Origin: Crossiella sp. SN42
Lineage (GTDB): Bacteria > Actinomycetota > Actinomycetes > Mycobacteriales > Pseudonocardiaceae
Direction: 5' to 3'
DNA length: 64,000 nt
Assembly (NCBI RefSeq): GCF_023897065.1
Contig: NZ_JAMHIV010000011.1
Location: 124,001 to 188,000, forward strand
Below are positions 18,655 through 28,069 of this stretch, piece after piece. A program made the translations under genes and the position numbers. The notes beneath the pieces were generated by a model. That model saw only the letters and a list, made by a program, of their open reading frames with translations. It did not search any database and was not told where the DNA came from. Numbering within the stretch: the first letter of the stretch is position 1; each line of letters starts with the position of its first letter.

Positions 18655-18978
18655 CCGGCCAGCCTAGGACGGCGCAAGCGCCCCGATCCGGCGACAACCA
18701 TGACGGTTCTCTTTCGGATGACCGGGTGACCATCCGTCCGATGATCAACTACTGGTGGTAATGGTTATCAGCAAAGCCGAAAGCGGCGCCGTTCGCCCAG
18801 GTGTCAGCCGAACGGAATCCCGCTGACCTGGGCGGACGACGCCGCCGATTGGTGCCCCCGGCGCGGCTCGGACAGCATCCACACGAACCCGGCCAGACTC
18901 CGAGCTGGCGATCTCCGCCAGCGTCAAGATCACCCGGCGTCGCCGTCGGCCGGGCGGGTCCTCTCGATGACCACGCGG
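18655..18978. other. Intergenic region between two minus-strand units
   Basis: 324 bp downstream of the XRE/TPR gene and upstream of the OmpR-type regulator. An imperfect inverted repeat GCCCAGGTGTCAGC (18795-18808) / GCTGACCTGGGC (18822-18833) may end the XRE/TPR transcript. A short minus-strand frame at 18745-18933 shows no family features and I do not call it. Confidence 0.35.
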
Positions 18979-20187
18979 CTACCCGGCCACGCCGCACCAG
19001 GCCGCGTAGCCGCGCACGCTCTCGGTGGTGCGCACTTCCTCGCGGGCCAGCACCCTGATGGTCTCGTGGACCATGGGGTGGTACCGGGTCTGCGTCGGCG
19101 CGATGCTCTTGGCCTGTTGCAGGGACAGGAACGCCTTCTTCCGGTTCCCGTGAATCAGGTACCCGCGAGCCAGGTCGATGTAGTGGTGACCCACGCGTTC
19201 CTTCGGCGCGGCAGCAGGCAGCTCGAATTCTTGGGACCGCTTCACCGCCTCGGTGCCATCCATCATTTCCACCGCGAGCCCGACCGACCAGATGTTGACA
19301 TTCGTCCTACCGAAGCAGAGCCGGTAGTCATCCCGATCCTCTCCGATCCGGTCTGCGGTTTCCCTGGCCTCAGCCAAATGGGTATCGGCGAGATCACGCT
19401 TCCCGGCCCGCGCGGCTGCCAATCCCGATTTGAGGTGCAGGCTCCCCCACATCGAGAGCACCGGAGCCTGCCCCTTGCCGATCTCCGCCTCTATGCGGCT
19501 CCTGCTCTTCTCCAGGAACCGCAGCGCGCCGGACCAGTCCGCCGCCCCGATCAATTCGCCCGCACGCTGGTAGTCACCCGCCAGGACCGCGAGTTCGTCA
19601 CCAGACCGCGCCGCCGCCCACTCGTAACGTTCCACGGCCAAGGATGCGAGGTCGGTGTAGCCGAGCCGGTACGCCACCTGACAGGCCGCCGCGTAGGCCT
19701 CAGCCAGCAAGCCGAAGGCGCGCTCCCGGCTCGCCCCGCTCAGGACGTGTGACGCCTGCCTGAGTTCACCGAGCAGGCCGGGGATCTCCGCACCCAGTTC
19801 GACCAGGTTCGCGGACTGACGCAACTGCGAGGCTTTGGCCACTGCCGAGACCAGCTCACCAATCGGCCGAATCGCCACAGACTCGTCCGACGGCCCCAAA
19901 TCGTATGCGGCCAGTTCACGCCGAATCGGATGAATAGAGGAATGCACCTCACGTTCGGTCCGGCTGCGCCGCCGATAGGGCTGGTCCAGCAGATCCGCCA
20001 CCCCGATGCCGAGCGCACGCGCACACGCGCCGACAAACGCGGGAGAGGCGGGAACTCGCTCCTGTTCGACCGCCCGGACGAGGCTGACCGAGACCGCCGC
20101 GCGCATGGCGAGTTTGGCCTGGGTCCAGCCGAGAAGCTTGCGCTCCTCGGCGACTCGTCGGCCCACTCCGGAAACCTGCGAATCCAT
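18979..20187 (-). CDS. XRE-family regulator with TPR-like C-terminal region
   Basis: 402 residues. The N-terminal helix-turn-helix is GRRVAEERKLLGWTQAKLAMRAAVSVSLVRAVEQER. The remaining ~320 residues are alpha-helical with TPR-like pairs (EAYAAACQVAYRLGYTDLASLAVERYEWAAARS; LAAARAGKRDLADTHLAEARETADRIGED). This form is common in actinomycetes and resembles regulators that bind peptides or small ligands. AAGGGG precedes the ATG. It diverges from a second XRE gene at 20346. Confidence 0.82.
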   Translation of the reverse strand: MDSQVSGVGRRVAEERKLLGWTQAKLAMRAAVSVSLVRAVEQERVPASPAFVGACARALGIGVADLLDQPYRRRSRTEREVHSSIHPIRRELAAYDLGPSDESVAIRPIGELVSAVAKASQLRQSANLVELGAEIPGLLGELRQASHVLSGASRERAFGLLAEAYAAACQVAYRLGYTDLASLAVERYEWAAARSGDELAVLAGDYQRAGELIGAADWSGALRFLEKSRSRIEAEIGKGQAPVLSMWGSLHLKSGLAAARAGKRDLADTHLAEARETADRIGEDRDDYRLCFGRTNVNIWSVGLAVEMMDGTEAVKRSQEFELPAAAPKERVGHHYIDLARGYLIHGNRKKAFLSLQQAKSIAPTQTRYHPMVHETIRVLAREEVRTTESVRGYAAWCGVAG

Positions 20188-20345
20188 GAACAGCCCCTTC
20201 CCGCGAGAGGGTCGTCTCCTCCACCATCCCATGCTGCACCAGCTAGCCGAAGAGTGAATCTGACTTGTCACTTCCTTGGCACTAGCCGTTTTCGATCATC
20301 CCTAATGTCCTGATCATGCATCCGCCGATAGACGGGGAGGACGGG

Positions 20346-21248
20346 ATGGCTGCGCGAACAGCACAGCCGGGTGTGGGGCTCCCCGCCCGACTACGTCACC
20401 TGTGTGCCGAACTGCGCGCCCTGCGCAAGGCACAGCGGTGGACGCTGAGCCAGGTCGCCACCGCGCTGGGGTTCTCCGTGACCAAGGTCCAGCGGATGGA
20501 AACCGGACGCCGGGGCCTGAAGCGCGACGACGTGTCCGCCCTGCTCACCCTCTACCAGGTGTCCTCAGAGCGCCGGGATCGCCTACTCGGCCTGATTGCC
20601 ACCACCGGCGAGCCCGCGTGGTGGCAGGTTCCCGGGGTGCGGCTCCCTGAAGACTGGCGGCAGCGGGTCGCCTTCGAGGACGAGGCCACCGTGATCCACG
20701 ACTACGAGGTCGGCTCCGTGCCCGCCCTGCTCCAGACCGCCGCGTACACCCGGGTCCTGCTGGCGACCTGGTACCCGCGACTCTCCGAGGCCGACCTGAC
20801 TCGCATGGTCGCGGCCAACCTCACTCGTCAGCTCGTCCTCGACCGATCGGAGCCGCCTCACCTGCACTGCCTGATCGACGAGAGCGCCTTGCTCCGACCG
20901 GTGGGCGGGGCGTCGGTGCTCGCCCAGCAGCTCCACCTGTTGCGCGAGATCGCCGCCCGGCCCGAGGTGACCCTGCGGGTGGTCCCGCTGATGGCTGGCG
21001 CGCATCCCGGCACCAGGGGATCACTGACCCTGATGGAGTTCGCCGACGGGCCAGCGGTGGCCAGGACGGCGGGCGCGGAACGACTCCTCGACGCGCGCTC
21101 CACGGTGAGCCAGGCACGGCAGGACTGGGCCGCGATGACCCACGCCGCGCTGTCGGCATCGGCGACCGCCGCGCTGCTGGATGAGCGCGCGACGGAAGCC
21201 CAGCAGAAAGCTATTGACAAACTTGATGCAGGTATGCTATCGAGGTAG
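20346..21248 (+). CDS. XRE-family regulator with DUF5753 domain
   Basis: 300 residues. HTH at about 15-70 (LRALRKAQRWTLSQVATALGFSVTKVQRMETGRRG) followed by the DUF5753 domain (EDEATVIHDYEVGSVPALLQTAAYTRVLL...). In Streptomyces and relatives this family (including BldB-associated regulators) is usually followed by a small DUF397 gene; none is present here, so the usual partner is missing. GGGGAGGACGGG precedes the ATG at 20346. Confidence 0.88.
   Translation: MAARTAQPGVGLPARLRHLCAELRALRKAQRWTLSQVATALGFSVTKVQRMETGRRGLKRDDVSALLTLYQVSSERRDRLLGLIATTGEPAWWQVPGVRLPEDWRQRVAFEDEATVIHDYEVGSVPALLQTAAYTRVLLATWYPRLSEADLTRMVAANLTRQLVLDRSEPPHLHCLIDESALLRPVGGASVLAQQLHLLREIAARPEVTLRVVPLMAGAHPGTRGSLTLMEFADGPAVARTAGAERLLDARSTVSQARQDWAAMTHAALSASATAALLDERATEAQQKAIDKLDAGMLSR
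21214..21243 (+). promoter_or_regulatory. Candidate promoter at the end of the DUF5753 gene
   Basis: TTGACA (21214-21219) and TATCGA (21238-21243) are spaced by 18 bp, in a locally AT-richer patch. It would read into the replication-relaxation gene. The small inverted repeat GGTAGC (21244-21249) / GCTACC (21256-21261) lies just downstream, near the expected transcript start. Confidence 0.45.
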
Positions 21249-21595
21249 CTGATCCGCTACCGACCCGGGTCTGCGCAGGCGGACAGTCGAGACCCGGTCG
21301 AGGATCGACAGAGCGTGTCCCGCACCAGCGACGCATCCTTGGTGTCGTCGGCGTCCTCTGACGCCGGACCAAGAGTCTCCGCGTCCACACGGATCGATCG
21401 GGACTGACCACGTCGTCGATTTCTCCTGCCCGGGTGGTGGTGATCGTGGAGCGTCCAGCAGCACATACCGGTGGCGATACCTCTCGGTGTTCCGATCGGG
21501 ATTCCGCTCAGAGCTGCCACCCCGAACTGCCTACTACAAGTCCCATCAACCCTGGTCAGAGCGCCGCTCGGTGCCTGTTCGCGGTTCCAGACTCG
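21249..21595. other. Leader region before the replication-relaxation gene
   Basis: 347 bp. Apart from the inverted repeat at 21244-21261 I see no structure. The downstream frame is open from a GTG at 21434, so part of this region may be coding if translation starts there. Confidence 0.35.
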
Positions 21596-22573
21596 ATGGT
21601 GGTCCATCAAGGTTTCACGTCCGCGCCGGCGGGGCGGCGAGTGCCGACGCCGGCTTCGCCCGCTGTCCGCGGGCAGATCACCGACCGGGATCGACGGGTG
21701 CTGGCCCTGCTGGCAGAGCACTTCACCTTCACCACCTCCCAGCTCGCCCTGCTCGCGGGCTTCGGCTCGGTGATCACCGCACAGCACCGGCTCGCGATGC
21801 TGCACAAGCGGGACGTACTGCACCGGGACCGGCCATTCCGTTCTGGAGGCGGCTCCTACGAGTGGCACTGGATGCTCGGCCCGGTCGGCGCGCGGCTCAT
21901 CGCCGAGCAGCACCGCGTCGCGCCGATCAGGCCCGCCAAGGTCTCGGCGCGCTGGCGCAAGCTGTTCCACGGCTGGCGGTGGGCGGAGCTGTCCGCGCAG
22001 CACGCCTGGTTCTGCACCCTCGTCGCCGACGGCACCGCCGGGGACCTGGTGGTGTGGCGGTCGGCGTGGCGGGTCAGCCGCACCTGGCAGGCCACCACCG
22101 ACGGCTACGGCCGCTGGCGCTACCCCGACGGCCGCGAACTGGCCTTCGCCCTGCTGCTCGACGACCCACCCCGCGTAGGAGCGCACGAGTTGTGCGCCCG
22201 GCTGGCCAAGCTCCCCGACCCGGACATGCCGTTCACCCGCCGCACGGGTCCCAGCGGGGACACCATCCCCTTGTTGTGGTGCGCCACGCCGCACCGGGAG
22301 GAGACCATCCGCCGCGCGGTGGCCAAGTTCCTCGGCGGTGAGACCGGAATGCCGCTCGGCCTGGCCTGCGCGCAGCAGGCCGACACGACGGCTGGTGGCG
22401 CGCACGGACGCGTGTGGCTGCCGCTGGGCAGCCTCCGGCACCTGCCCGGCCGCCTCACCCTCGCCGAACTGGCGGAGGCCGCGCGGAGCCATGCCAACCC
22501 GAACTCGACCTACTGGACGGAGAACGACGATGAGCTGATCCGCTACGACGACACCGAAGACTGGGTCGCCTGA
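21596..22573 (+). CDS. Replication-relaxation family protein
   Basis: 325 residues. This family (PF13814-type) is found on actinobacterial integrative plasmids and elements. It contains a winged-helix-like N-terminal part, ITDRDRRVLALLAEHFTFTTSQLALLAGFGSVITAQHRLAMLHKRDVLHR, followed by a conserved WHWMLGPVGARLIAE. The middle part resembles WRWAELSAQHAWFC. The family is thought to act in plasmid replication or relaxation, but the biochemistry is unclear. ATG 21596 is preferred because the family starts close before the HTH; GTG 21434 would add 54 low-complexity residues. It marks the mobile nature of the region. Confidence 0.78.
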   Translation: MVVHQGFTSAPAGRRVPTPASPAVRGQITDRDRRVLALLAEHFTFTTSQLALLAGFGSVITAQHRLAMLHKRDVLHRDRPFRSGGGSYEWHWMLGPVGARLIAEQHRVAPIRPAKVSARWRKLFHGWRWAELSAQHAWFCTLVADGTAGDLVVWRSAWRVSRTWQATTDGYGRWRYPDGRELAFALLLDDPPRVGAHELCARLAKLPDPDMPFTRRTGPSGDTIPLLWCATPHREETIRRAVAKFLGGETGMPLGLACAQQADTTAGGAHGRVWLPLGSLRHLPGRLTLAELAEAARSHANPNSTYWTENDDELIRYDDTEDWVA

Positions 22574-22854
22574 GCACAGGCAGCCACAGGAACCTGGACT
22601 CCACGTCGAACCGCCCACACCGGAGTCCAGTCAACCGGTGACCGCTGGCCTCGACGAGTGCCAATGTGCAGTCGGGGAGTCGAAGCACCACGGGTTGCAG
22701 CAGCCGGACCGGCCGGTCCTCCTACGCGCGATCGCCCCGCGCGGCCAGCTTTCCCTTGCCCAGCAACGGGTCGGGGCAGGCGTGGTGACTTCGACTGGCC
22801 GAGTTCGCTGATCGACGGTTGTACCCCGACCGCTGGCCAGCACCGGAGAATCCC
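22574..22854. other. Intergenic stretch inside the element
   Basis: 281 bp with no convincing gene, RNA or hairpin. The following small gene has its own GGAGA ribosome site at the right edge. Confidence 0.35.
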
Positions 22855-23154
22855 ATGCGCAGCAACGGAAAACCCGACCACGATCGTCACGCTGTGGTTG
22901 TCCCACTGCCTCGATCTTCCCTGGACAATCACCCGGAAGGTCCCCGCCAAATAGGCTCTGACCAGCCAGTATGGCGATACAATCAGGTACAGCGAAGCGG
23001 CAGGGGCCACCGCTGTTCCGGCCGGGTCCACCACCTTGGTGGTGCCGAAGCCGAACGGGTTCGCGCGGAACTCGCCGCAGTGATCAACGATCTTCTCGAC
23101 TGGGCCGTTCGGCAAGCCGACCACCGGTCCGCTGAGGATGGTGAAGCCGCATGA
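22855..23154 (+). CDS. Small hypothetical protein coupled to the recombinase
   Basis: 99 residues. GGAGA lies 4-5 nt before the ATG, and the stop overlaps the recombinase start as ATGA, so the frame is probably real and translationally coupled. The C-terminal third (ERVRAELAAVINDLLDWAVRQADHR) is predicted helical and acidic; the N-terminal part is polar. I do not recognise a family. It could be a recombination directionality factor or a helper by position, but nothing in the sequence shows this. Confidence 0.5.
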   Translation: MRSNGKPDHDRHAVVVPLPRSSLDNHPEGPRQIGSDQPVWRYNQVQRSGRGHRCSGRVHHLGGAEAERVRAELAAVINDLLDWAVRQADHRSAEDGEAA

Positions 23155-25136
23155 CCTCCGACGAGGTGACCGTCAACCCCATGGCTCCGGCCCTGGCCCG
23201 GATGACCGCGCCGGTCTCCGGGCCGTCCGGGCTGTCGGACTACGCGGTTTCGCCACTCGGCGTGCCGGTGGCGTTGCTGCGGGACGAGGTGCGGGTGGCC
23301 TTCCTCGGCCGCACGTCCACCGAGGACCAGCAGGACCCACGGCAGTCCGCGCTGCGCCAACTCGGCAACTGCAAGATCGCGATCCCCGAGTCCTGGGTGA
23401 TCGTGGCCCACTTCTACGACGTCGAGTCCGGCCGGATGGAACTCGGCCAGCGCGGCCAGGGCACCGGCTACGACCGGTTCGACATCCCGATCGCCCGGGA
23501 CGGCGGCATCGCCGATCTGCTGGACGAGGCCCAGCACCCCGGCCGCCGGTTCGACGTGGTGATCTGCGAGAGCGTGGCCCGGGTCGCCAGGCGCGCCTAC
23601 GAAGGGCTCTCGATCGAACGGGCACTGGAGCAGGCCGAGGTCCCACTGTTCGCCGCGAACGAGCCGATCACGCTCACCGGCAGCCGGGCGCAGCGGATCT
23701 TGCAGCGGCGGATCAACCAGTCGGTGGCCGAGTACGAGGTGCTCAACACCCTGGAGCAGTCCTGGGGCGGGCTCTGCACGCACGTGCGGGAGGGCTGGAA
23801 CATCGGCAAGCCGCCCTACGGCTACCGGTCCAAGACCTTCCGCCACCCCAACCCCACCAAGGCCGCCAAGGGTCTGGTCAAGACCCGGCTCGAACCCGAT
23901 GACGCGCGGGCCGAGACCGTCACCCAGATCGCGCTGTGGCGGTACCACGAGAACCTCGGCTACGGCACCATCGCCGAACGGCTCAACGCCGACCCGTCCA
24001 GGTACCCGCCGCCGGAGCCGCCCGGCAAGACGAGAGCGCGCGGGGCGTGGGGCAAGACCAGCGTGTACGAGATCCTGCGCAACCCCAAGTACACCGGCTA
24101 CCAGGTCTTCAACCGGCGGGCGACCCGGTCCCGGAGCGGGAAGGTGAACGACCCGGTCAAGTGGGTGTGGTCGACCGAGCCCGCGCACGAGCCGCTGATC
24201 CCGAAGTGGATGTACGACGAGATCAACGCCCGCAGGGCGGCCAAGCGCGGTTCCCGGGAGGGCAACAAGCCCAACACCCATCCGCAGACCCGGCGGACCT
24301 ACCTGCTGCGCGGGATGATCTTCCACGGGTGCGGGCGCCGGATGACCGGCACGCCCCGGCACGGCAGCACCTACTACCTGTGCTGGCCACGGGGCGGCAA
24401 CCTGGGCAGGCCGGACAACTACGCGGGTCATCCCGGCTCGGTGTACCTGCGGGAGGACGCGATCCTGGACGCGGTGGCCAGGTTCTACGCCGAGCGGGTG
24501 TTCGGCGAGCACCGGCGGGAGATCCTGGCGGCTGACCTCGCCGGAGTCGACGACAGCGCCAGCCGTGCGCGCCAGGCGGAGCGGGAGCGGCTGGGACGGG
24601 TCCTGGCCGACCTGGAGCGGCGGCAGGAGTCGATCCTGCGGCAGGCACAGGACGGCGACCCGGGCGATCCGTTCAGCAAGGCTCTGCGCGGCACCTACAA
24701 CGACCTGGAGGCGGAGAAGGCAGCCTTGGGGACTGCCCTCACCCGTCTGGATGCCGCTGAGACGGCTGAACCGCGCCTTCCCGGCTCCGGAGACCTGGCG
24801 ATCCTGGATTCGCTGCCCTACGTGGCTCTCAGGCTCGCCGAGGCACCTGAGTCGCTGCTACGGAGGCTGTTCGAGATCACCCAGCTCAGCGTCCGCCTGG
24901 AAGATGACGGTGACCACCTCATGATCACCGTCCGGCTCCCCGCCGACCTCGCGCCCGAGGTCGCGGGCACCGCCGCGCAGATCGGCGATGTGTCCACCAC
25001 ACGGGAAGCGCCTGCTCAGACAAGTGCTCCCGGTGTGGATGGAGTACGTGCCCCCGGACGGATTCGAACCGTCACTCGGACCCTTTTAAGGGGCCTGCCT
25101 CTACCGATTGGGCTACGGGGGCAGCGGGCAGCCTAA
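23151..25136 (+). CDS. Large serine recombinase
   Basis: 661 residues. The resolvase domain starts at about residue 48: VAFLGRTSTEDQQDPRQS carries the nucleophile Ser, and VICESVARVARR the catalytic Arg segment. The recombinase domain follows (VTQIALWRYHENLGYGTIAERLN, W-G-K-T-SVYEILRNPKYTGY), then a zinc-ribbon-like region (HGCGRRMTG...YYLCWP) that keeps few Cys, and a long coiled coil (about 470-530). Such enzymes integrate and excise mobile DNA at short att sites. The last 29 codons run antisense through a tRNA gene, so the 3' end of the gene probably lies at an attachment junction. Confidence 0.9.
   Translation: MTSDEVTVNPMAPALARMTAPVSGPSGLSDYAVSPLGVPVALLRDEVRVAFLGRTSTEDQQDPRQSALRQLGNCKIAIPESWVIVAHFYDVESGRMELGQRGQGTGYDRFDIPIARDGGIADLLDEAQHPGRRFDVVICESVARVARRAYEGLSIERALEQAEVPLFAANEPITLTGSRAQRILQRRINQSVAEYEVLNTLEQSWGGLCTHVREGWNIGKPPYGYRSKTFRHPNPTKAAKGLVKTRLEPDDARAETVTQIALWRYHENLGYGTIAERLNADPSRYPPPEPPGKTRARGAWGKTSVYEILRNPKYTGYQVFNRRATRSRSGKVNDPVKWVWSTEPAHEPLIPKWMYDEINARRAAKRGSREGNKPNTHPQTRRTYLLRGMIFHGCGRRMTGTPRHGSTYYLCWPRGGNLGRPDNYAGHPGSVYLREDAILDAVARFYAERVFGEHRREILAADLAGVDDSASRARQAERERLGRVLADLERRQESILRQAQDGDPGDPFSKALRGTYNDLEAEKAALGTALTRLDAAETAEPRLPGSGDLAILDSLPYVALRLAEAPESLLRRLFEITQLSVRLEDDGDHLMITVRLPADLAPEVAGTAAQIGDVSTTREAPAQTSAPGVDGVRAPGRIRTVTRTLLRGLPLPIGLRGQRAA
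25049..25122 (-). tRNA. tRNA with UAA anticodon (Leu-type) but short variable loop
   Basis: 74 nt cloverleaf on the minus strand. It has a perfect 7-bp acceptor stem GCCCCCG/CGGGGGC, a 3-bp D stem GCC/GGC, and an anticodon stem GGCCC/GGGTC with loop CTTAAAA (anticodon UAA). The variable loop CGAGT is only 5 nt, the T stem is GACGG/CCGTC with loop TTCGAAT, and discriminator A73 is present. No CCA is encoded. Normal bacterial tRNA-Leu has a long variable arm, so this is an unusual type I tRNA that reads the codon UUA, which is rare in GC-rich actinomycetes. It lies antisense to the 3' end of the recombinase gene. Confidence 0.82.
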
Positions 25137-25244: not shown

Positions 25245-26438
25245 CTACAGGCCGGCACGGGCGTCGAGTAGCTCTGCGAAGCGGCCCGCCACCCAGTCGT
25301 GCACCGCGTCGGAGACCTCGGTGCTGCCGGCGCGGTGTTCGAACCAGCGCCAGTCGCAGCTCACGTTGATCTCCAGGAAGACGTGTTCGCCGTCGGCCAT
25401 CAGCAGGTCGAACGCGGCGACCTGGACGTTCCAGTGCCTGGCCAGCGCGAGCAGCTTGGGGGCCAGTTCCGCGGGGATGTCGACCCTGGTCACCTTGACC
25501 GCGTCCGGGTCCACCCACAGCTGCGCCGGGTCCAGCTTCTCCACCCGGTAAGTGATCAGCTTGTCGTCGACGACGAAGACCCGCAGCTCGCCCTCGGCGT
25601 TGAGGAACTGCTGCACGATCACCGGCGCGGACTCCGGGCTGTCACTGGCCCTGCTGGTGTCCAGCGGCCGGGGGAACAGCCCGTGCAGCGCGCCGGGGCG
25701 CGGCTCCAGCAGGTGCTGGCCGGCGGTCTTGACGATGCAGCGGCCGCCGCCGGGCCTGGTGCGGCCGGGCTGGGTGGTGACCGCGGTGCGCGGCACCCGC
25801 AGCCCGAAGGCGGTGGCGTCGGAGAGCTGGGTGAGCCGGTCCAGCTGGCAGGTGGCCCGCGTCGGGTTGACGTGTTCCCAGTCGGTGCGCTGGGCCAGCC
25901 AGTTGATCACCGAGCGCCACTGGTCGGCGGCGTAGGCCCCGCTGATGGTGCGCTGGTCCACCGGCACCGCGGAGATGTCGAAGTGCCTGCGCCAGACCAG
26001 GATCGGCCGCAGCAGCCGCAGGTCCAGCTCAACCAGCGGGGCGTCGGTGTAGATGGTCAGCGGCAGGTTCAGGCAGCGGTCGGCGTCGATGCGCACCATC
26101 CGGATGCCGCGCTCGGCCAGCGCCAGGGAGAGCTCGTTCATCTCCATGTCCGCGGCCCGGGCCAGCACCAGCACGCAGGGCAGCGGGTCGCCGCCGTCCT
26201 CTTCCACCAGGCCCATCTCGTGCACGCGTTCCTGGAAGTCCAGGCAGGTGCTGGGCGAGCGGTAGTAGTAGTCCTGCCCCTGGAGCAGCAGCGGGGTCGT
26301 CCTGGACGGACTGGCCGGAGTCGGGACGGCGGCAGGCGCCACCTCGGTGGTCGTCGACCCGGGGTCGATCACCTCGGTGGCGGCAGGCGGACCAGGTGGC
26401 CCAGATCCGGCTTCCTGCCCCCGTCCGGCGGCGGTCAC
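25245..26438 (-). CDS. ATP-grasp ribosomal peptide maturase
   Basis: 397 residues. ATP-grasp ligases of this type (MvdC/MvdD/GRASP_SAV_5884-like) join carboxylates to hydroxyl or amino groups in a precursor peptide. Features include an N-terminal pre-ATP-grasp region with VLVLARAADMEMNELSLALAERGIRMVRIDAD, a central strand VWRRHFD, a nucleotide-binding segment RCIVKTAGQ (ATP-binding Lys), VIVQQFLNAEGELRVFVVDDKLITYRVE, and the metal-binding end FLEINVSCDWRWFE. The first 50 residues are Pro/Thr-rich. The GTG start is 3 nt after the stop of a 39-residue peptide gene, the likely substrate. No companion methyltransferase is present downstream. Confidence 0.85.
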   Translation of the reverse strand: MTAAGRGQEAGSGPPGPPAATEVIDPGSTTTEVAPAAVPTPASPSRTTPLLLQGQDYYYRSPSTCLDFQERVHEMGLVEEDGGDPLPCVLVLARAADMEMNELSLALAERGIRMVRIDADRCLNLPLTIYTDAPLVELDLRLLRPILVWRRHFDISAVPVDQRTISGAYAADQWRSVINWLAQRTDWEHVNPTRATCQLDRLTQLSDATAFGLRVPRTAVTTQPGRTRPGGGRCIVKTAGQHLLEPRPGALHGLFPRPLDTSRASDSPESAPVIVQQFLNAEGELRVFVVDDKLITYRVEKLDPAQLWVDPDAVKVTRVDIPAELAPKLLALARHWNVQVAAFDLLMADGEHVFLEINVSCDWRWFEHRAGSTEVSDAVHDWVAGRFAELLDARAGL

Positions 26439-26441
26439 GTG

Positions 26442-26561
26442 TCAGTCGTCCTTCTTGCGGAAGACCTTCCGCGCCTTGGCGTACTCCGCGGCGTAGTCGG
26501 CGAGCGCGCTGTCCTTGGCCTTCCCCTCGCGTACCAGGGCGGCCAGCTCCTCGATCGACAT
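26442..26561 (-). CDS. 39-residue charged peptide, candidate RiPP precursor
   Basis: The peptide reads MSIEELAALVREGKAKDSAL, then a helical, highly charged tail with ADYAAEYAKARK and ending FRKKDD. It has no Cys, only two Ser (Ser2 and Ser18), no Thr, and many Lys, Asp and Glu, so amide (lactam) links made by an ATP-grasp enzyme would be the natural possibility. It starts with GAGAGGTGA about 7 nt before the ATG and ends 3 nt before the maturase gene. It does not resemble the common GRASP target family as I know it. It could instead be a regulatory small protein; the pairing is inferred from position. Confidence 0.65.
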   Translation of the reverse strand: MSIEELAALVREGKAKDSALADYAAEYAKARKVFRKKDD

Positions 26562-26579
26562 GGCGGTCACCTCTCTTCG

Positions 26580-26617: not shown

Positions 26618-26647
26618 AGTCTCAAGTTCCAACTCACAGAATGTCAA
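26618..26647 (-). promoter_or_regulatory. Candidate promoter of the peptide/ATP-grasp operon
   Basis: On the minus strand TTGACA (26647-26642) is a perfect -35, with an 18-bp spacer to a weak -10 GAGACT (26623-26618). The region is AT-rich compared with its surroundings. Confidence 0.4.
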
Positions 26648-26743: not shown

Positions 26744-28069
26744 TCAACTCGCTGTGGCGCGGGCGAACTCGGCCTTGGGGTCGTTGATCTGACCGAGTGA
26801 CACCACCTCGCGCCGGAAGAGTAGCGCAAGGGTCCAGTCGATCAGGACCCGGAACTTCCGGTTGAAGGTGGGCATCCGGCTCACGTGGTAGGTGCGGTGC
26901 ATGAACCACGCCGGGAAGCCCTTGAGCTTGATCCCGTAGACGTCCGCGACGCCCTTGTACAGGCCCAGGCTGGCCACCGAACCGGCGTACTTGTGCCGGT
27001 AGGGCTTGAGCTCCTTGCCGCGCAGCGAGGCCAGGATGTTGCCGGCCAGGTGCACGGCCTGCCGCACCGCGTGCTGCGCCGAGGGGCTGCAGGTGGCGGT
27101 GGGGTCCTCCTCGGCGCGGGACAGGTCGGGCACGGCCGCGTTGTCCCCGGCGGCCCAGGCGTCCGGCATGCCCTCGATCTGCAGGTTGGCCGTGCAGCGC
27201 ACCCGGCCACGGGCGTCCCGCGGCAGGTCGGTCTGCTCCAGCACCGGGTTGGCCTTGACGCCGGCGGTCCACACGATGGTCTCGGCGTCGAGCTCGGTGC
27301 CGTCGCTGAGCACCACGTGACCGTCCACCATGGACTCGACCCTGGTGTCGAGGTAGCACTTGATGCCGCGCTCCTCCAGGGTCTCCACGGTGTAGACGCC
27401 CATCTTCGGGCTGACCTCGGGCATCACCCGCCCGGCCGCCTCGACCAGGACCCAGTTCATGTCCTCGGGCTTGACGTTCTTGTAGTAGCGGGTGGCGTAG
27501 CGGGCCATGTCCTCCAGCTCGGCCAGCGCCTCGATGCCGGCGTAGCCGCCGCCGATGACCACGAAGGTCAGCAGCTTGCGGCGCAGCTCGGGGTCGTCGC
27601 TGGTGGAGGCCAGGTCCATCCGGGACAGCACGTGGTTGCGCAGGTAGATCGCCTCGCCCACGGTCTTGAACGAGATGCCGCGCTCGGCAAGGCCGGGGAT
27701 CGGGAGGGTGCGGGCGACCGAGCCGAGGGCGACCACGAGCACGTCGTAGTCCACGGACTCCAGGTCGCCGGTCGGCGAGGCGACGATGGCTCGCTTGTCG
27801 GCGTGGTTGATCTCGGTCACGCGCCCGGTGAGCACGTGACAGCGTTTCAGGACCCGGCGCAGCGGCACGACGACGTGCCTGGGCTCGATGGAGCCCGCGG
27901 CGGCCTCGGGGAGGAAGGGCTGGTAGGTCATGTGCGGCTGCGGATCGACGACCGTCACGGACGCCTCACCCGCGCGCAGCTTGGCCTGCAGCTTCAGTGC
28001 GGTGTACATACCGACATAGCCCCCACCGACGACCAGGATCCGGGTCGGTTGCGACTTCACAGCAGCCAT
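26744..28069 (-). CDS. ndh: Type II NADH dehydrogenase (NDH-2)
   Basis: 441 residues. A membrane-peripheral flavoprotein that passes electrons from NADH to the quinone pool without pumping protons. There are two Rossmann motifs: RILVVGGGYVGMYTALKLQ near the start for FAD and FVVIGGGYAGIEALAEL (about 165) for NADH. Also present are WTAGVKANP, AAGDNAAVPD and a C-terminal amphipathic region (PTFNRKFRVLIDWTLALLFRREVVSLG) that binds the membrane. The length is near the usual 440-460. It follows the peptide operon on the same strand but with its own 5' region. Confidence 0.9.
   Translation of the reverse strand: MAAVKSQPTRILVVGGGYVGMYTALKLQAKLRAGEASVTVVDPQPHMTYQPFLPEAAAGSIEPRHVVVPLRRVLKRCHVLTGRVTEINHADKRAIVASPTGDLESVDYDVLVVALGSVARTLPIPGLAERGISFKTVGEAIYLRNHVLSRMDLASTSDDPELRRKLLTFVVIGGGYAGIEALAELEDMARYATRYYKNVKPEDMNWVLVEAAGRVMPEVSPKMGVYTVETLEERGIKCYLDTRVESMVDGHVVLSDGTELDAETIVWTAGVKANPVLEQTDLPRDARGRVRCTANLQIEGMPDAWAAGDNAAVPDLSRAEEDPTATCSPSAQHAVRQAVHLAGNILASLRGKELKPYRHKYAGSVASLGLYKGVADVYGIKLKGFPAWFMHRTYHVSRMPTFNRKFRVLIDWTLALLFRREVVSLGQINDPKAEFARATAS

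What the first reader, a model, noticed from the sequence alone, without database searches (positions are those of the whole stretch)
25245..26561. Candidate new RiPP pair: 39-residue charged peptide plus ATP-grasp maturase
A peptide gene of 39 codons ends 3 nt before an ATP-grasp enzyme of the MvdC/MvdD/GRASP type. The peptide has no Cys or Thr and only two Ser, but many Lys, Asp and Glu, so if modified it would more likely carry lactam than ester links. It does not look like the usual GRASP target peptide, and no methyltransferase, transporter or protease is adjacent. The pairing is seen in the sequence; the chemistry is inference.
Basis: partly seen in the sequence, partly recalled or inferred. 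Interest (0 to 1): 0.75.

Follow-up and report, generated by a model that had tools for sequence, protein, structure and literature searches.

The report
KKDD-tailed peptide paired with ATP-grasp ligase
A tiny conserved peptide ending in Lys-Lys-Asp-Asp is encoded just before an ATP-grasp peptide-modifying enzyme in nearly every genome found with that enzyme, and distant relatives that keep a similar tail also carry a flavin oxidase, so it is very probably an unstudied modified-peptide pathway.

Summary
In detail: a 39-codon peptide gene (26561-26442, -) ends 3 nt before an ATP-grasp gene (26438-25245, -). The pair is conserved in Pseudonocardiaceae: 108 of 109 sampled genomes with the enzyme have the peptide (the miss is a gene cut by a contig end), and none of 294 has the peptide without the enzyme. 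Most Lys positions vary; what is kept is an acidic-Tyr motif and a C-terminal [K/R]-K-D-D tail under purifying selection. A third gene, absent here and apparently lost, is a SagB-type flavin dehydrogenase, adjacent in 24 of 69 named loci. Distant three-gene relatives, in another Actinomycetota family and on a Ligilactobacillus plasmid (enzyme 24% identical), have different peptides that still end KKDN, KKDS, KKDA; one relative (L113) does not. The enzyme model matches graspetide synthetases best, RimK/ArgX-type ligases less well. Most likely it makes an amide bond at the KKDx tail (Lys-carboxylate lactam, or ligation to the C terminus). The kind is probably in print as Makarova 2022 'branch 6' predictions; identity with those clusters could not be checked. 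New variant of a known kind; chemistry untested.

The parts
26442..26561 (-). 39-aa precursor-like peptide; two predicted helices (residues 3-11, 18-31), acidic-Tyr motif A-E-Y-A-K-A, C-terminal tail K-K-D-D
   Evidence: an upstream peptide ending [K/R]KDD in 98 of 99 loci (L001-L030 and L031-L099 overlap in genomes); alignment A1; helices from the model; dN/dS
25245..26438 (-). ATP-grasp peptide ligase, 397 aa, GTG start 3 nt after the peptide stop; residues about 1-48 a variable linker, domain from P49
   Evidence: fold like PsnB/MdnC/CdnC/PruB; K237, E284, R286, D344, E356, N358 identical in all 8 rows of A5 (their catalytic role is from general knowledge)
26618..26647 (-). conserved promoter-like element: TTGACA (26647-26642), 18-nt spacer, GAGACT (26623-26618)
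   Evidence: coordinates checked; in 15 aligned upstream regions CTTGAC stands in 14 and RARACT in 14, counted by eye; not tested for function
26567..26575 (-). Shine-Dalgarno GAGAGGTGA of the peptide gene
25048..25122 (-). tRNA-Leu(UAA), constant downstream boundary of the locus, not itself part of the pathway
   Evidence: downstream in 15 of 15 representative loci
26744..28069 (-). type II NADH dehydrogenase, constant upstream neighbour, probably not part of the pathway
   Evidence: present in 16 of 16 loci compared, the window included

Best explanation
The 39-residue peptide is the ribosomally made substrate of the ATP-grasp enzyme. Its helical N-terminal part with the E-Y-x-x-A motif acts as leader; the C-terminal [K/R]-K-D-x tail is the core. 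The enzyme phosphorylates a carboxylate in that tail (Asp side chain or terminal carboxylate) and joins it to an amine, most simply a Lys side chain, giving a small lactam. In the three-gene form, which I take as ancestral, a SagB-type flavin dehydrogenase with an RRE-like N-terminal domain then oxidises the product; Crossiella, Allokutzneria, Lentzea, Kutzneria and Saccharopolyspora have lost that step. Shown: the pair, its co-inheritance, the tail, the third gene in relatives, kept active-site residues and fold. Inferred: that the peptide is the substrate, where it is modified, the bond, the direction of the SagB change. I put about 0.8 on 'substrate', 0.7 on 'modified at the tail', 0.45 on an intramolecular Lys lactam.
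For: Co-occurrence 108 of 109, and 0 of 294 genomes with the peptide alone. Peptide stop to nearest in-frame start of the enzyme -4 to +6 nt in 96 of 98 loci (L025 94 and L076 56). dN/dS median 0.27 (39-aa type, 139 pairs) and 0.165 (40-aa type, 638 pairs; pairs with dS 0.2-2 only). Among 7302 ORFs of 30-110 aa in all loci held at that call, 117 end in [K/R]KDx, and by their tails all are this peptide, overlapping loci counted more than once. Peptides ending KKDN, KKDS, KKDA precede ATP-grasp and SagB genes in L151, L150 and plasmid locus L155, whose enzymes are 23-30% identical to the window's. Best structure matches are graspetide synthetases (PsnB E 3.4e-18, then CdnC, MdnC, AMdnB, PruB), with RimK and ArgX weaker at about 4-5e-12.
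Against: L113, a relative with all three genes, has a peptide ending CKSCHGG, not KKDx, so the tail is not universal. The peptide has no proline and lacks the Phhx(1,2)h leader motif found in about half of graspetide precursors. The enzyme fails every curated graspetide-maturase cut-off. No protease or transporter is linked in the window. The co-fold is modest (pLDDT 69, pTM 0.72) and residues 34-104, tail included, are under 50; coordinates are not given, so docking could not be checked.
Confidence: 0.5

Rival explanations
1. Carrier-peptide logic: the enzyme activates the peptide's C-terminal carboxylate and ligates a free amino acid or amine to it, in the manner of RimK on S6, LysX/ArgX on LysW, or PEARLs on scaffold peptides; SagB then oxidises the added unit and a small molecule is released.
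For: Where KKD is present it sits one residue from the C terminus while the last side chain varies (D, N, S, A), which is easiest to explain if the terminal carboxylate itself matters. RimK and an ArgX-LysW structure are among the matches. SagB works here without a cyclodehydratase: of 11 genomes with the SagB gene, 4 have no YcaO match at all and in the other 7 the YcaO genes lie on other contigs or megabases away. Peptides of SagB-positive Streptoalloteichus, Longimycelium and Actinoalloteichus have no Cys/Ser/Thr in the last 12 residues, so an azoline in the tail is not its substrate.
Against: Graspetide synthetases match better than RimK/ArgX in both sequence and fold. No release protease or further tailoring gene is constant in the neighbourhood. 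A conserved Lys-Lys is not needed for this scheme.
Confidence: 0.27
2. The peptide is not the substrate but a small partner protein of the enzyme (chaperone, activator or RRE-like helper), comparable to MirC or the 'LPL' proteins, and the true substrate lies elsewhere.
For: One-to-one co-occurrence and a conserved helical body fit a partner as well. A partner-dependent graspetide synthetase exists (PMC13097080, abstract and passages); LPL proteins are from PMC8939145.
Against: Over great distance the most constant part is a short C-terminal tail, not a folded surface; the body is little alike in the plasmid homologue (26% overall). Peptide-ligase-SagB is a usual order for precursor loci (my recall).
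Confidence: 0.14
3. KKDD is kept because its codons (AAGAAGGAC) double as the Shine-Dalgarno of the enzyme gene, the small ORF being a translational coupler.
For: AAGGA inside these codons lies about 9 nt before the enzyme start in many loci.
Against: 18 of 98 loci have AAGAAAGAC or AGGAAAGAC, which spoils AAGGA but keeps basic-Lys-Asp; in the last four codons 1287 of 1343 codon differences between pairs are synonymous. The tail persists where the enzyme start is far away: 71 nt in L155, at least 84 nt in L150.
Confidence: 0.03

Closest known systems
Makarova et al. 2022 (PMC8939145) ATP-grasp 'branch 6', precursor clusters 367 and 1115
   Same: ATP-grasp plus a small predicted precursor without GG or Phhx(1,2)h motif, plus, in most such loci, a SagB-like nitroreductase; the two precursor clusters are distantly related to each other (section text). 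Very probably the same kind.
   Different: Figures and supplements were not available, so neither letters nor species could be matched. A term search of the main text found no KKDD, Lentzea or Saccharopolyspora.
Graspetide synthetases PsnB, MdnC/MdnB, CdnC, PruB (MvdC/MvdD/TgmB type)
   Same: Fold and active-site residues; small gene just upstream.
   Different: 17-22% identity in the structure matches; the precursor has no Thr/Ser-acid core as in tgmA (L160) or the L157 peptide, and the KKD stands at the very C terminus.
RimK, LysX/ArgX with LysW, PEARLs (C-terminal ligation to a protein or scaffold peptide; roles recalled, PEARLs from passages of PMC11117183)
   Same: ATP-dependent amide formation on a small protein's C-terminal tail; a possible working analogy.
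   Different: RimK and ArgX match less well in fold; PEARLs are not of this subfamily.
SagB/ThcOx/McbC thiazoline oxidases
   Same: The accessory gene passes TIGR03605 in 3 of 3 proteins tested (113-128 bits, cut-off 78.4), and the L061 model matches ThcOx, BmdC, McbC.
   Different: No YcaO near the locus in 11 genomes examined, and in some peptides no Cys/Ser/Thr near the tail.

Membership tests
Graspetides (RiPPs made by MvdC/MvdD/TgmB-type ATP-grasp ligases) | ATP-grasp ligase with graspetide-synthetase fold and active-site residues | tested here: met
   Foldseek best hits PsnB/CdnC/MdnC/PruB; phmmer PsnB (7drm) 1.1e-6; key positions identical in 8 diverse rows
Graspetides (RiPPs made by MvdC/MvdD/TgmB-type ATP-grasp ligases) | Enzyme passes a curated maturase model (TIGR04184, 04185, 04187, 04192) | tested here: not met
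   45.6, 52.3, 84.7, 21.5 bits against 475, 425, 350, 230
Graspetides (RiPPs made by MvdC/MvdD/TgmB-type ATP-grasp ligases) | Adjacent, co-inherited precursor-like gene | tested here: met
   108 of 109 genomes; 0 of 294 with peptide alone; adjacency itself read in 98 of 99 loci
Graspetides (RiPPs made by MvdC/MvdD/TgmB-type ATP-grasp ligases) | Leader motif Phhx(1,2)h (in about half of precursors) | tested here: not met
   Window peptide has no proline; Pro occurs only in part of the family (e.g. Lentzea, Saccharopolyspora) and is no conserved column in A1
Graspetides (RiPPs made by MvdC/MvdD/TgmB-type ATP-grasp ligases) | Core with conserved Ser/Thr/Lys acceptors and Asp/Glu donors | tested here: inconclusive
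   Only [K/R]KD at the tail is near-constant; L113 lacks it
Graspetides (RiPPs made by MvdC/MvdD/TgmB-type ATP-grasp ligases) | Side-chain macrolactone or macrolactam (loss of 18 Da per ring) | not testable with these tools
   needs mass spectrometry
Makarova branch 6, precursor clusters 367/1115 | SagB-like gene in most loci with these precursors | tested here: inconclusive
   Adjacent in 24 of 69 named relatives and in L113, L150, L151, L155; absent from the window locus, only a partial 37% match elsewhere in its genome
Makarova branch 6, precursor clusters 367/1115 | Same precursor sequences | not testable with these tools
   Figure 6 and supplements not readable here
TgmA/TgmB (SAV_5884 type) | tgmA-type Thr/Asp-rich precursor | tested here: not met
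   compare the L160 tgmA with the window peptide
[quoted passage not shown]
   only fold similarity, weaker than to graspetide synthetases

The most novel reading that the evidence does not exclude
A cross-phylum class of peptide-derived small molecules defined by a fixed C-terminal KKDx tail: an ATP-grasp ligase and an RRE-guided SagB flavoenzyme build a constant product on or from the tail. In Pseudonocardiaceae it is kept at one tRNA-Leu locus, with one peptide gene per genome and a near-invariant tail, as for cofactor-type RiPPs (PQQ, mycofactocin) rather than diversifying antibiotics, and it works there even after loss of the oxidase.
Probability: 0.25. Interest if true: 0.8.

Novelty: new variant of a known kind. 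Interest (0 to 1): 0.6.

Why it matters
Makarova 2022 could not find precursors for most loci of its branch 6, and none of the papers listed in my searches characterises one. A KKDD peptide with one enzyme is about the smallest RiPP-type system one can test in E. coli, and the SagB-plus and SagB-minus forms allow the two steps to be separated. A tail kept almost unchanged over a whole family hints at a physiological role and not a weapon.

Tried and rejected
Azoline (TOMM) chemistry by SagB: rejected as the main idea; of 11 genomes with the SagB gene 4 have no YcaO and in 7 it is far from the locus, and several SagB-positive peptides lack Cys/Ser/Thr in the last 12 residues. Shine-Dalgarno explanation of KKDD: largely rejected. 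NDH-2 as a pathway gene: constant neighbour, but a conserved promoter-like element lies between it and the peptide. PQQ-like genes (by eye, no HMM run) near some loci: 3-4 of 16, other strand, not pursued. SagB-only relatives (L129-L146): tblastn with the window and L113 ligases found no ATP-grasp in the 18 fetched stretches; upstream ORFs were listed for 9 of the 18 and none ends in KKDx. Viral contigs: 33 pattern hits, none a relative. Plasmids with the window enzyme: none. Plasmids with the L151 SagB: 20 records, 15 listed, 3 regions opened; the Ligilactobacillus ones carry the cassette in 3 records. KKDD together with ATP-grasp in papers: 0. Iyer 2009 not held. A Pfam nitroreductase search of 7 genomes was uninformative.

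Full report
Observation. The window holds, on the - strand, a 39-codon ORF (26561-26442) that ends 3 nt before a 397-codon ATP-grasp ORF (26438-25245), in the same frame. The enzyme's best curated match is TIGR04187 at 84.7 bits (cut-off 350), then MvdC and MvdD models, all below cut-off; Pfam RimK 16.1 bits (cut-off 21). It has one match in its own genome of 9.72 Mb in 82 contigs. The genome is close to Crossiella: a Crossiella contig (L031) carries the enzyme at 94% identity.

Distribution. Of 297 genomes sampled from the family, 120 have some match at E<=1e-10; 109 of these are orthologues by my reading of the rows (62% identity or more, G061 and G011 partial; handles counted). The peptide profile A1 (31 distinct peptides) hits 107 of 294 genomes, all among the 109. 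Of the two left, G295 was read directly and has the peptide; G011 is a gene cut by a contig start. Two weak extra hits (E 0.005, 0.009) lie in genomes that already have the pair. I checked adjacency in 99 loci, not in every one of the 107 genomes: 98 have an upstream peptide ending [K/R]KDD and the miss, L099, lacks its upstream part; these are 30 loci and 69 named loci, which overlap in genomes. In a class-wide sample of 296 genomes only the window's own genome and one chance match (E 0.0028, inside a 629-codon frame) appear. The 69 named loci are from Pseudonocardiaceae, apart from one record labelled Nocardia (L096) that falls within Lentzea in the tree.

Selection and layout. The nearest in-frame enzyme start lies -4 to +6 nt from the peptide stop in 96 of 98 loci. 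dN/dS medians are 0.27 and 0.165 for the two length types, over pairs with dS 0.2-2. In 32 aligned peptides M1, L6, A7, R11, G13, L20, A21, Y27 and the last D never change; positions 5, 17 and 26 vary only between D and E; K14, K16, K29 are not kept. The tail codons vary mostly synonymously. A promoter-like TTGACA-18-GAGACT stands before the peptide (each box in 14 of 15 aligned loci, by eye). NDH-2 and ATP-grasp are kept in 16 of 16 compared loci, and tRNA-Leu(UAA) follows in 15 of 15 representatives.

The third gene. In 8 of 16 compared loci, and in 24 of 69 named loci, a SagB-family gene begins at the end of the ATP-grasp gene and precedes the tRNA. Three such proteins pass TIGR03605 and the L061 model resembles ThcOx, BmdC and McbC. 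Its first 83 residues are predicted as four strands, three helices and a strand, which I read as RRE/PqqD-like; that label is my recall, no search named it, and the model is modest (pLDDT 69). In the other 45 named loci the gene is not within the fetched flank: Crossiella, Allokutzneria, Lentzea, Kutzneria, Saccharopolyspora and YIM PH 21723. The tree needs 4 changes; loss is my reading, because the distant relatives have the gene. The window's genome has only a partial 37% match elsewhere. A YcaO search of 11 genomes with the gene found none in 4, and in 7 only copies on other contigs or megabases away.

Distant relatives. L113 (genome G191, same family): peptide MSIQELA...NDYAQALMICKSCHGG, ATP-grasp 37-40%, SagB 39-40%. 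A phylum-wide sample with the L113 enzyme finds 3 of 346 genomes: the window's own and two of another family, L150 and L151, peptides ending INKKDS and VLKKDN, each with ATP-grasp and SagB (the peptide starts there are my choice inside longer frames). In that family 2 of 39 genomes have the gene. On Ligilactobacillus salivarius plasmid pLS_3 (NZ_CP017110.1): a 41-aa hypothetical protein ending NFINKKDA, an unnamed ATP-grasp (24% to the window, E 1e-26 as a pair comparison; 29% to L151), SagB and a 92-aa protein; 3 plasmid records of 72,556 match at 99% or more. In all loci held at that time 7302 ORFs of 30-110 aa were scanned; 117 end in [K/R]KDx, and their tails show only this peptide, overlapping loci counted more than once. 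So the tail survives where the enzymes are about 25% identical. L113 is the exception and is told as such. Other ATP-grasp relatives opened on plasmids and a phage record (L157-L161) have different or no recognisable peptides.

Structure. The read-through chain (peptide plus enzyme) folded with pLDDT 69, pTM 0.72; the five models range from 69 down to 51. The peptide forms two helices (residues 3-11, 18-31; block means about 70-83), while tail and linker (34-104) are under 50. Foldseek ranks PsnB, CdnC, MdnC, AMdnB and PruB first, RimK and ArgX-LysW later. No coordinates are returned, so I cannot say whether the peptide docks.

How it works. The precursor-ligase reading rests on gene order, strict pairing, the enzyme's relatives and the tail. 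That the KKD stands one residue from the C terminus with a free choice of last residue leaves two chemistries open: Lys-to-carboxylate lactam, or ligation at the C-terminal carboxylate. SagB without a cyclodehydratase, and with no Cys/Ser/Thr near several tails, speaks against azoline oxidation.

In print. Makarova et al. 2022 (PMC8939145; abstract, passages, and section 6 parts 2-3 read) describe branch 6 ATP-grasps with precursor clusters 367 and 1115 and SagB-like enzymes. I think this is the same kind; figures and supplements were not readable. The listings showed me no paper characterising it. PMC13097080 (abstract, passages), PMC11117183, PMC12710340 and PMC13060819 (passages) were used for context only.

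Noticed in passing
window 18862-25047: About 6.2 kb absent from the Crossiella locus L031, whose sequence is continuous there with a 10-bp overlap at the tRNA-Leu end; it carries a large serine recombinase (23151-25136), a Replic_Relax protein (21434-22573) and HTH/DUF5753 regulators: an integrative element in tRNA-Leu.
   Followed up: partly
L129-L141 (e.g. L137 4879-5964, L138): SagB relatives (36-46%) with no ATP-grasp in the fetched stretch. In the 4 loci whose ORFs were listed a 970-1129 codon ORF that looks like an AfsR/SARP-type regulator is near, in two also MFS-like genes; small upstream ORFs carry an acidic-Tyr motif, e.g. MNTSAIDTVVTELSEEYQAAEVLNAWAERPADDD: a possible separate SagB-only peptide class; gene labels by eye.
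   Followed up: partly
L155 2732-5373 (Ligilactobacillus salivarius plasmid pLS_3): Three-gene KKDx cassette on a 27-kb mobilizable plasmid of a gut commensal, in 3 records from chicken and human sources; peptide and ATP-grasp are annotated hypothetical.
   Followed up: partly
L113 3542-5984: Three-gene relative whose peptide ends CKSCHGG in place of KKDx: either a switched core or a different product.
   Followed up: no
L154 4995-6104 (Priestia plasmid pA): SagB 43% identical to the L151 one, next to an MFS transporter gene and with no ATP-grasp annotated beside it.
   Followed up: no
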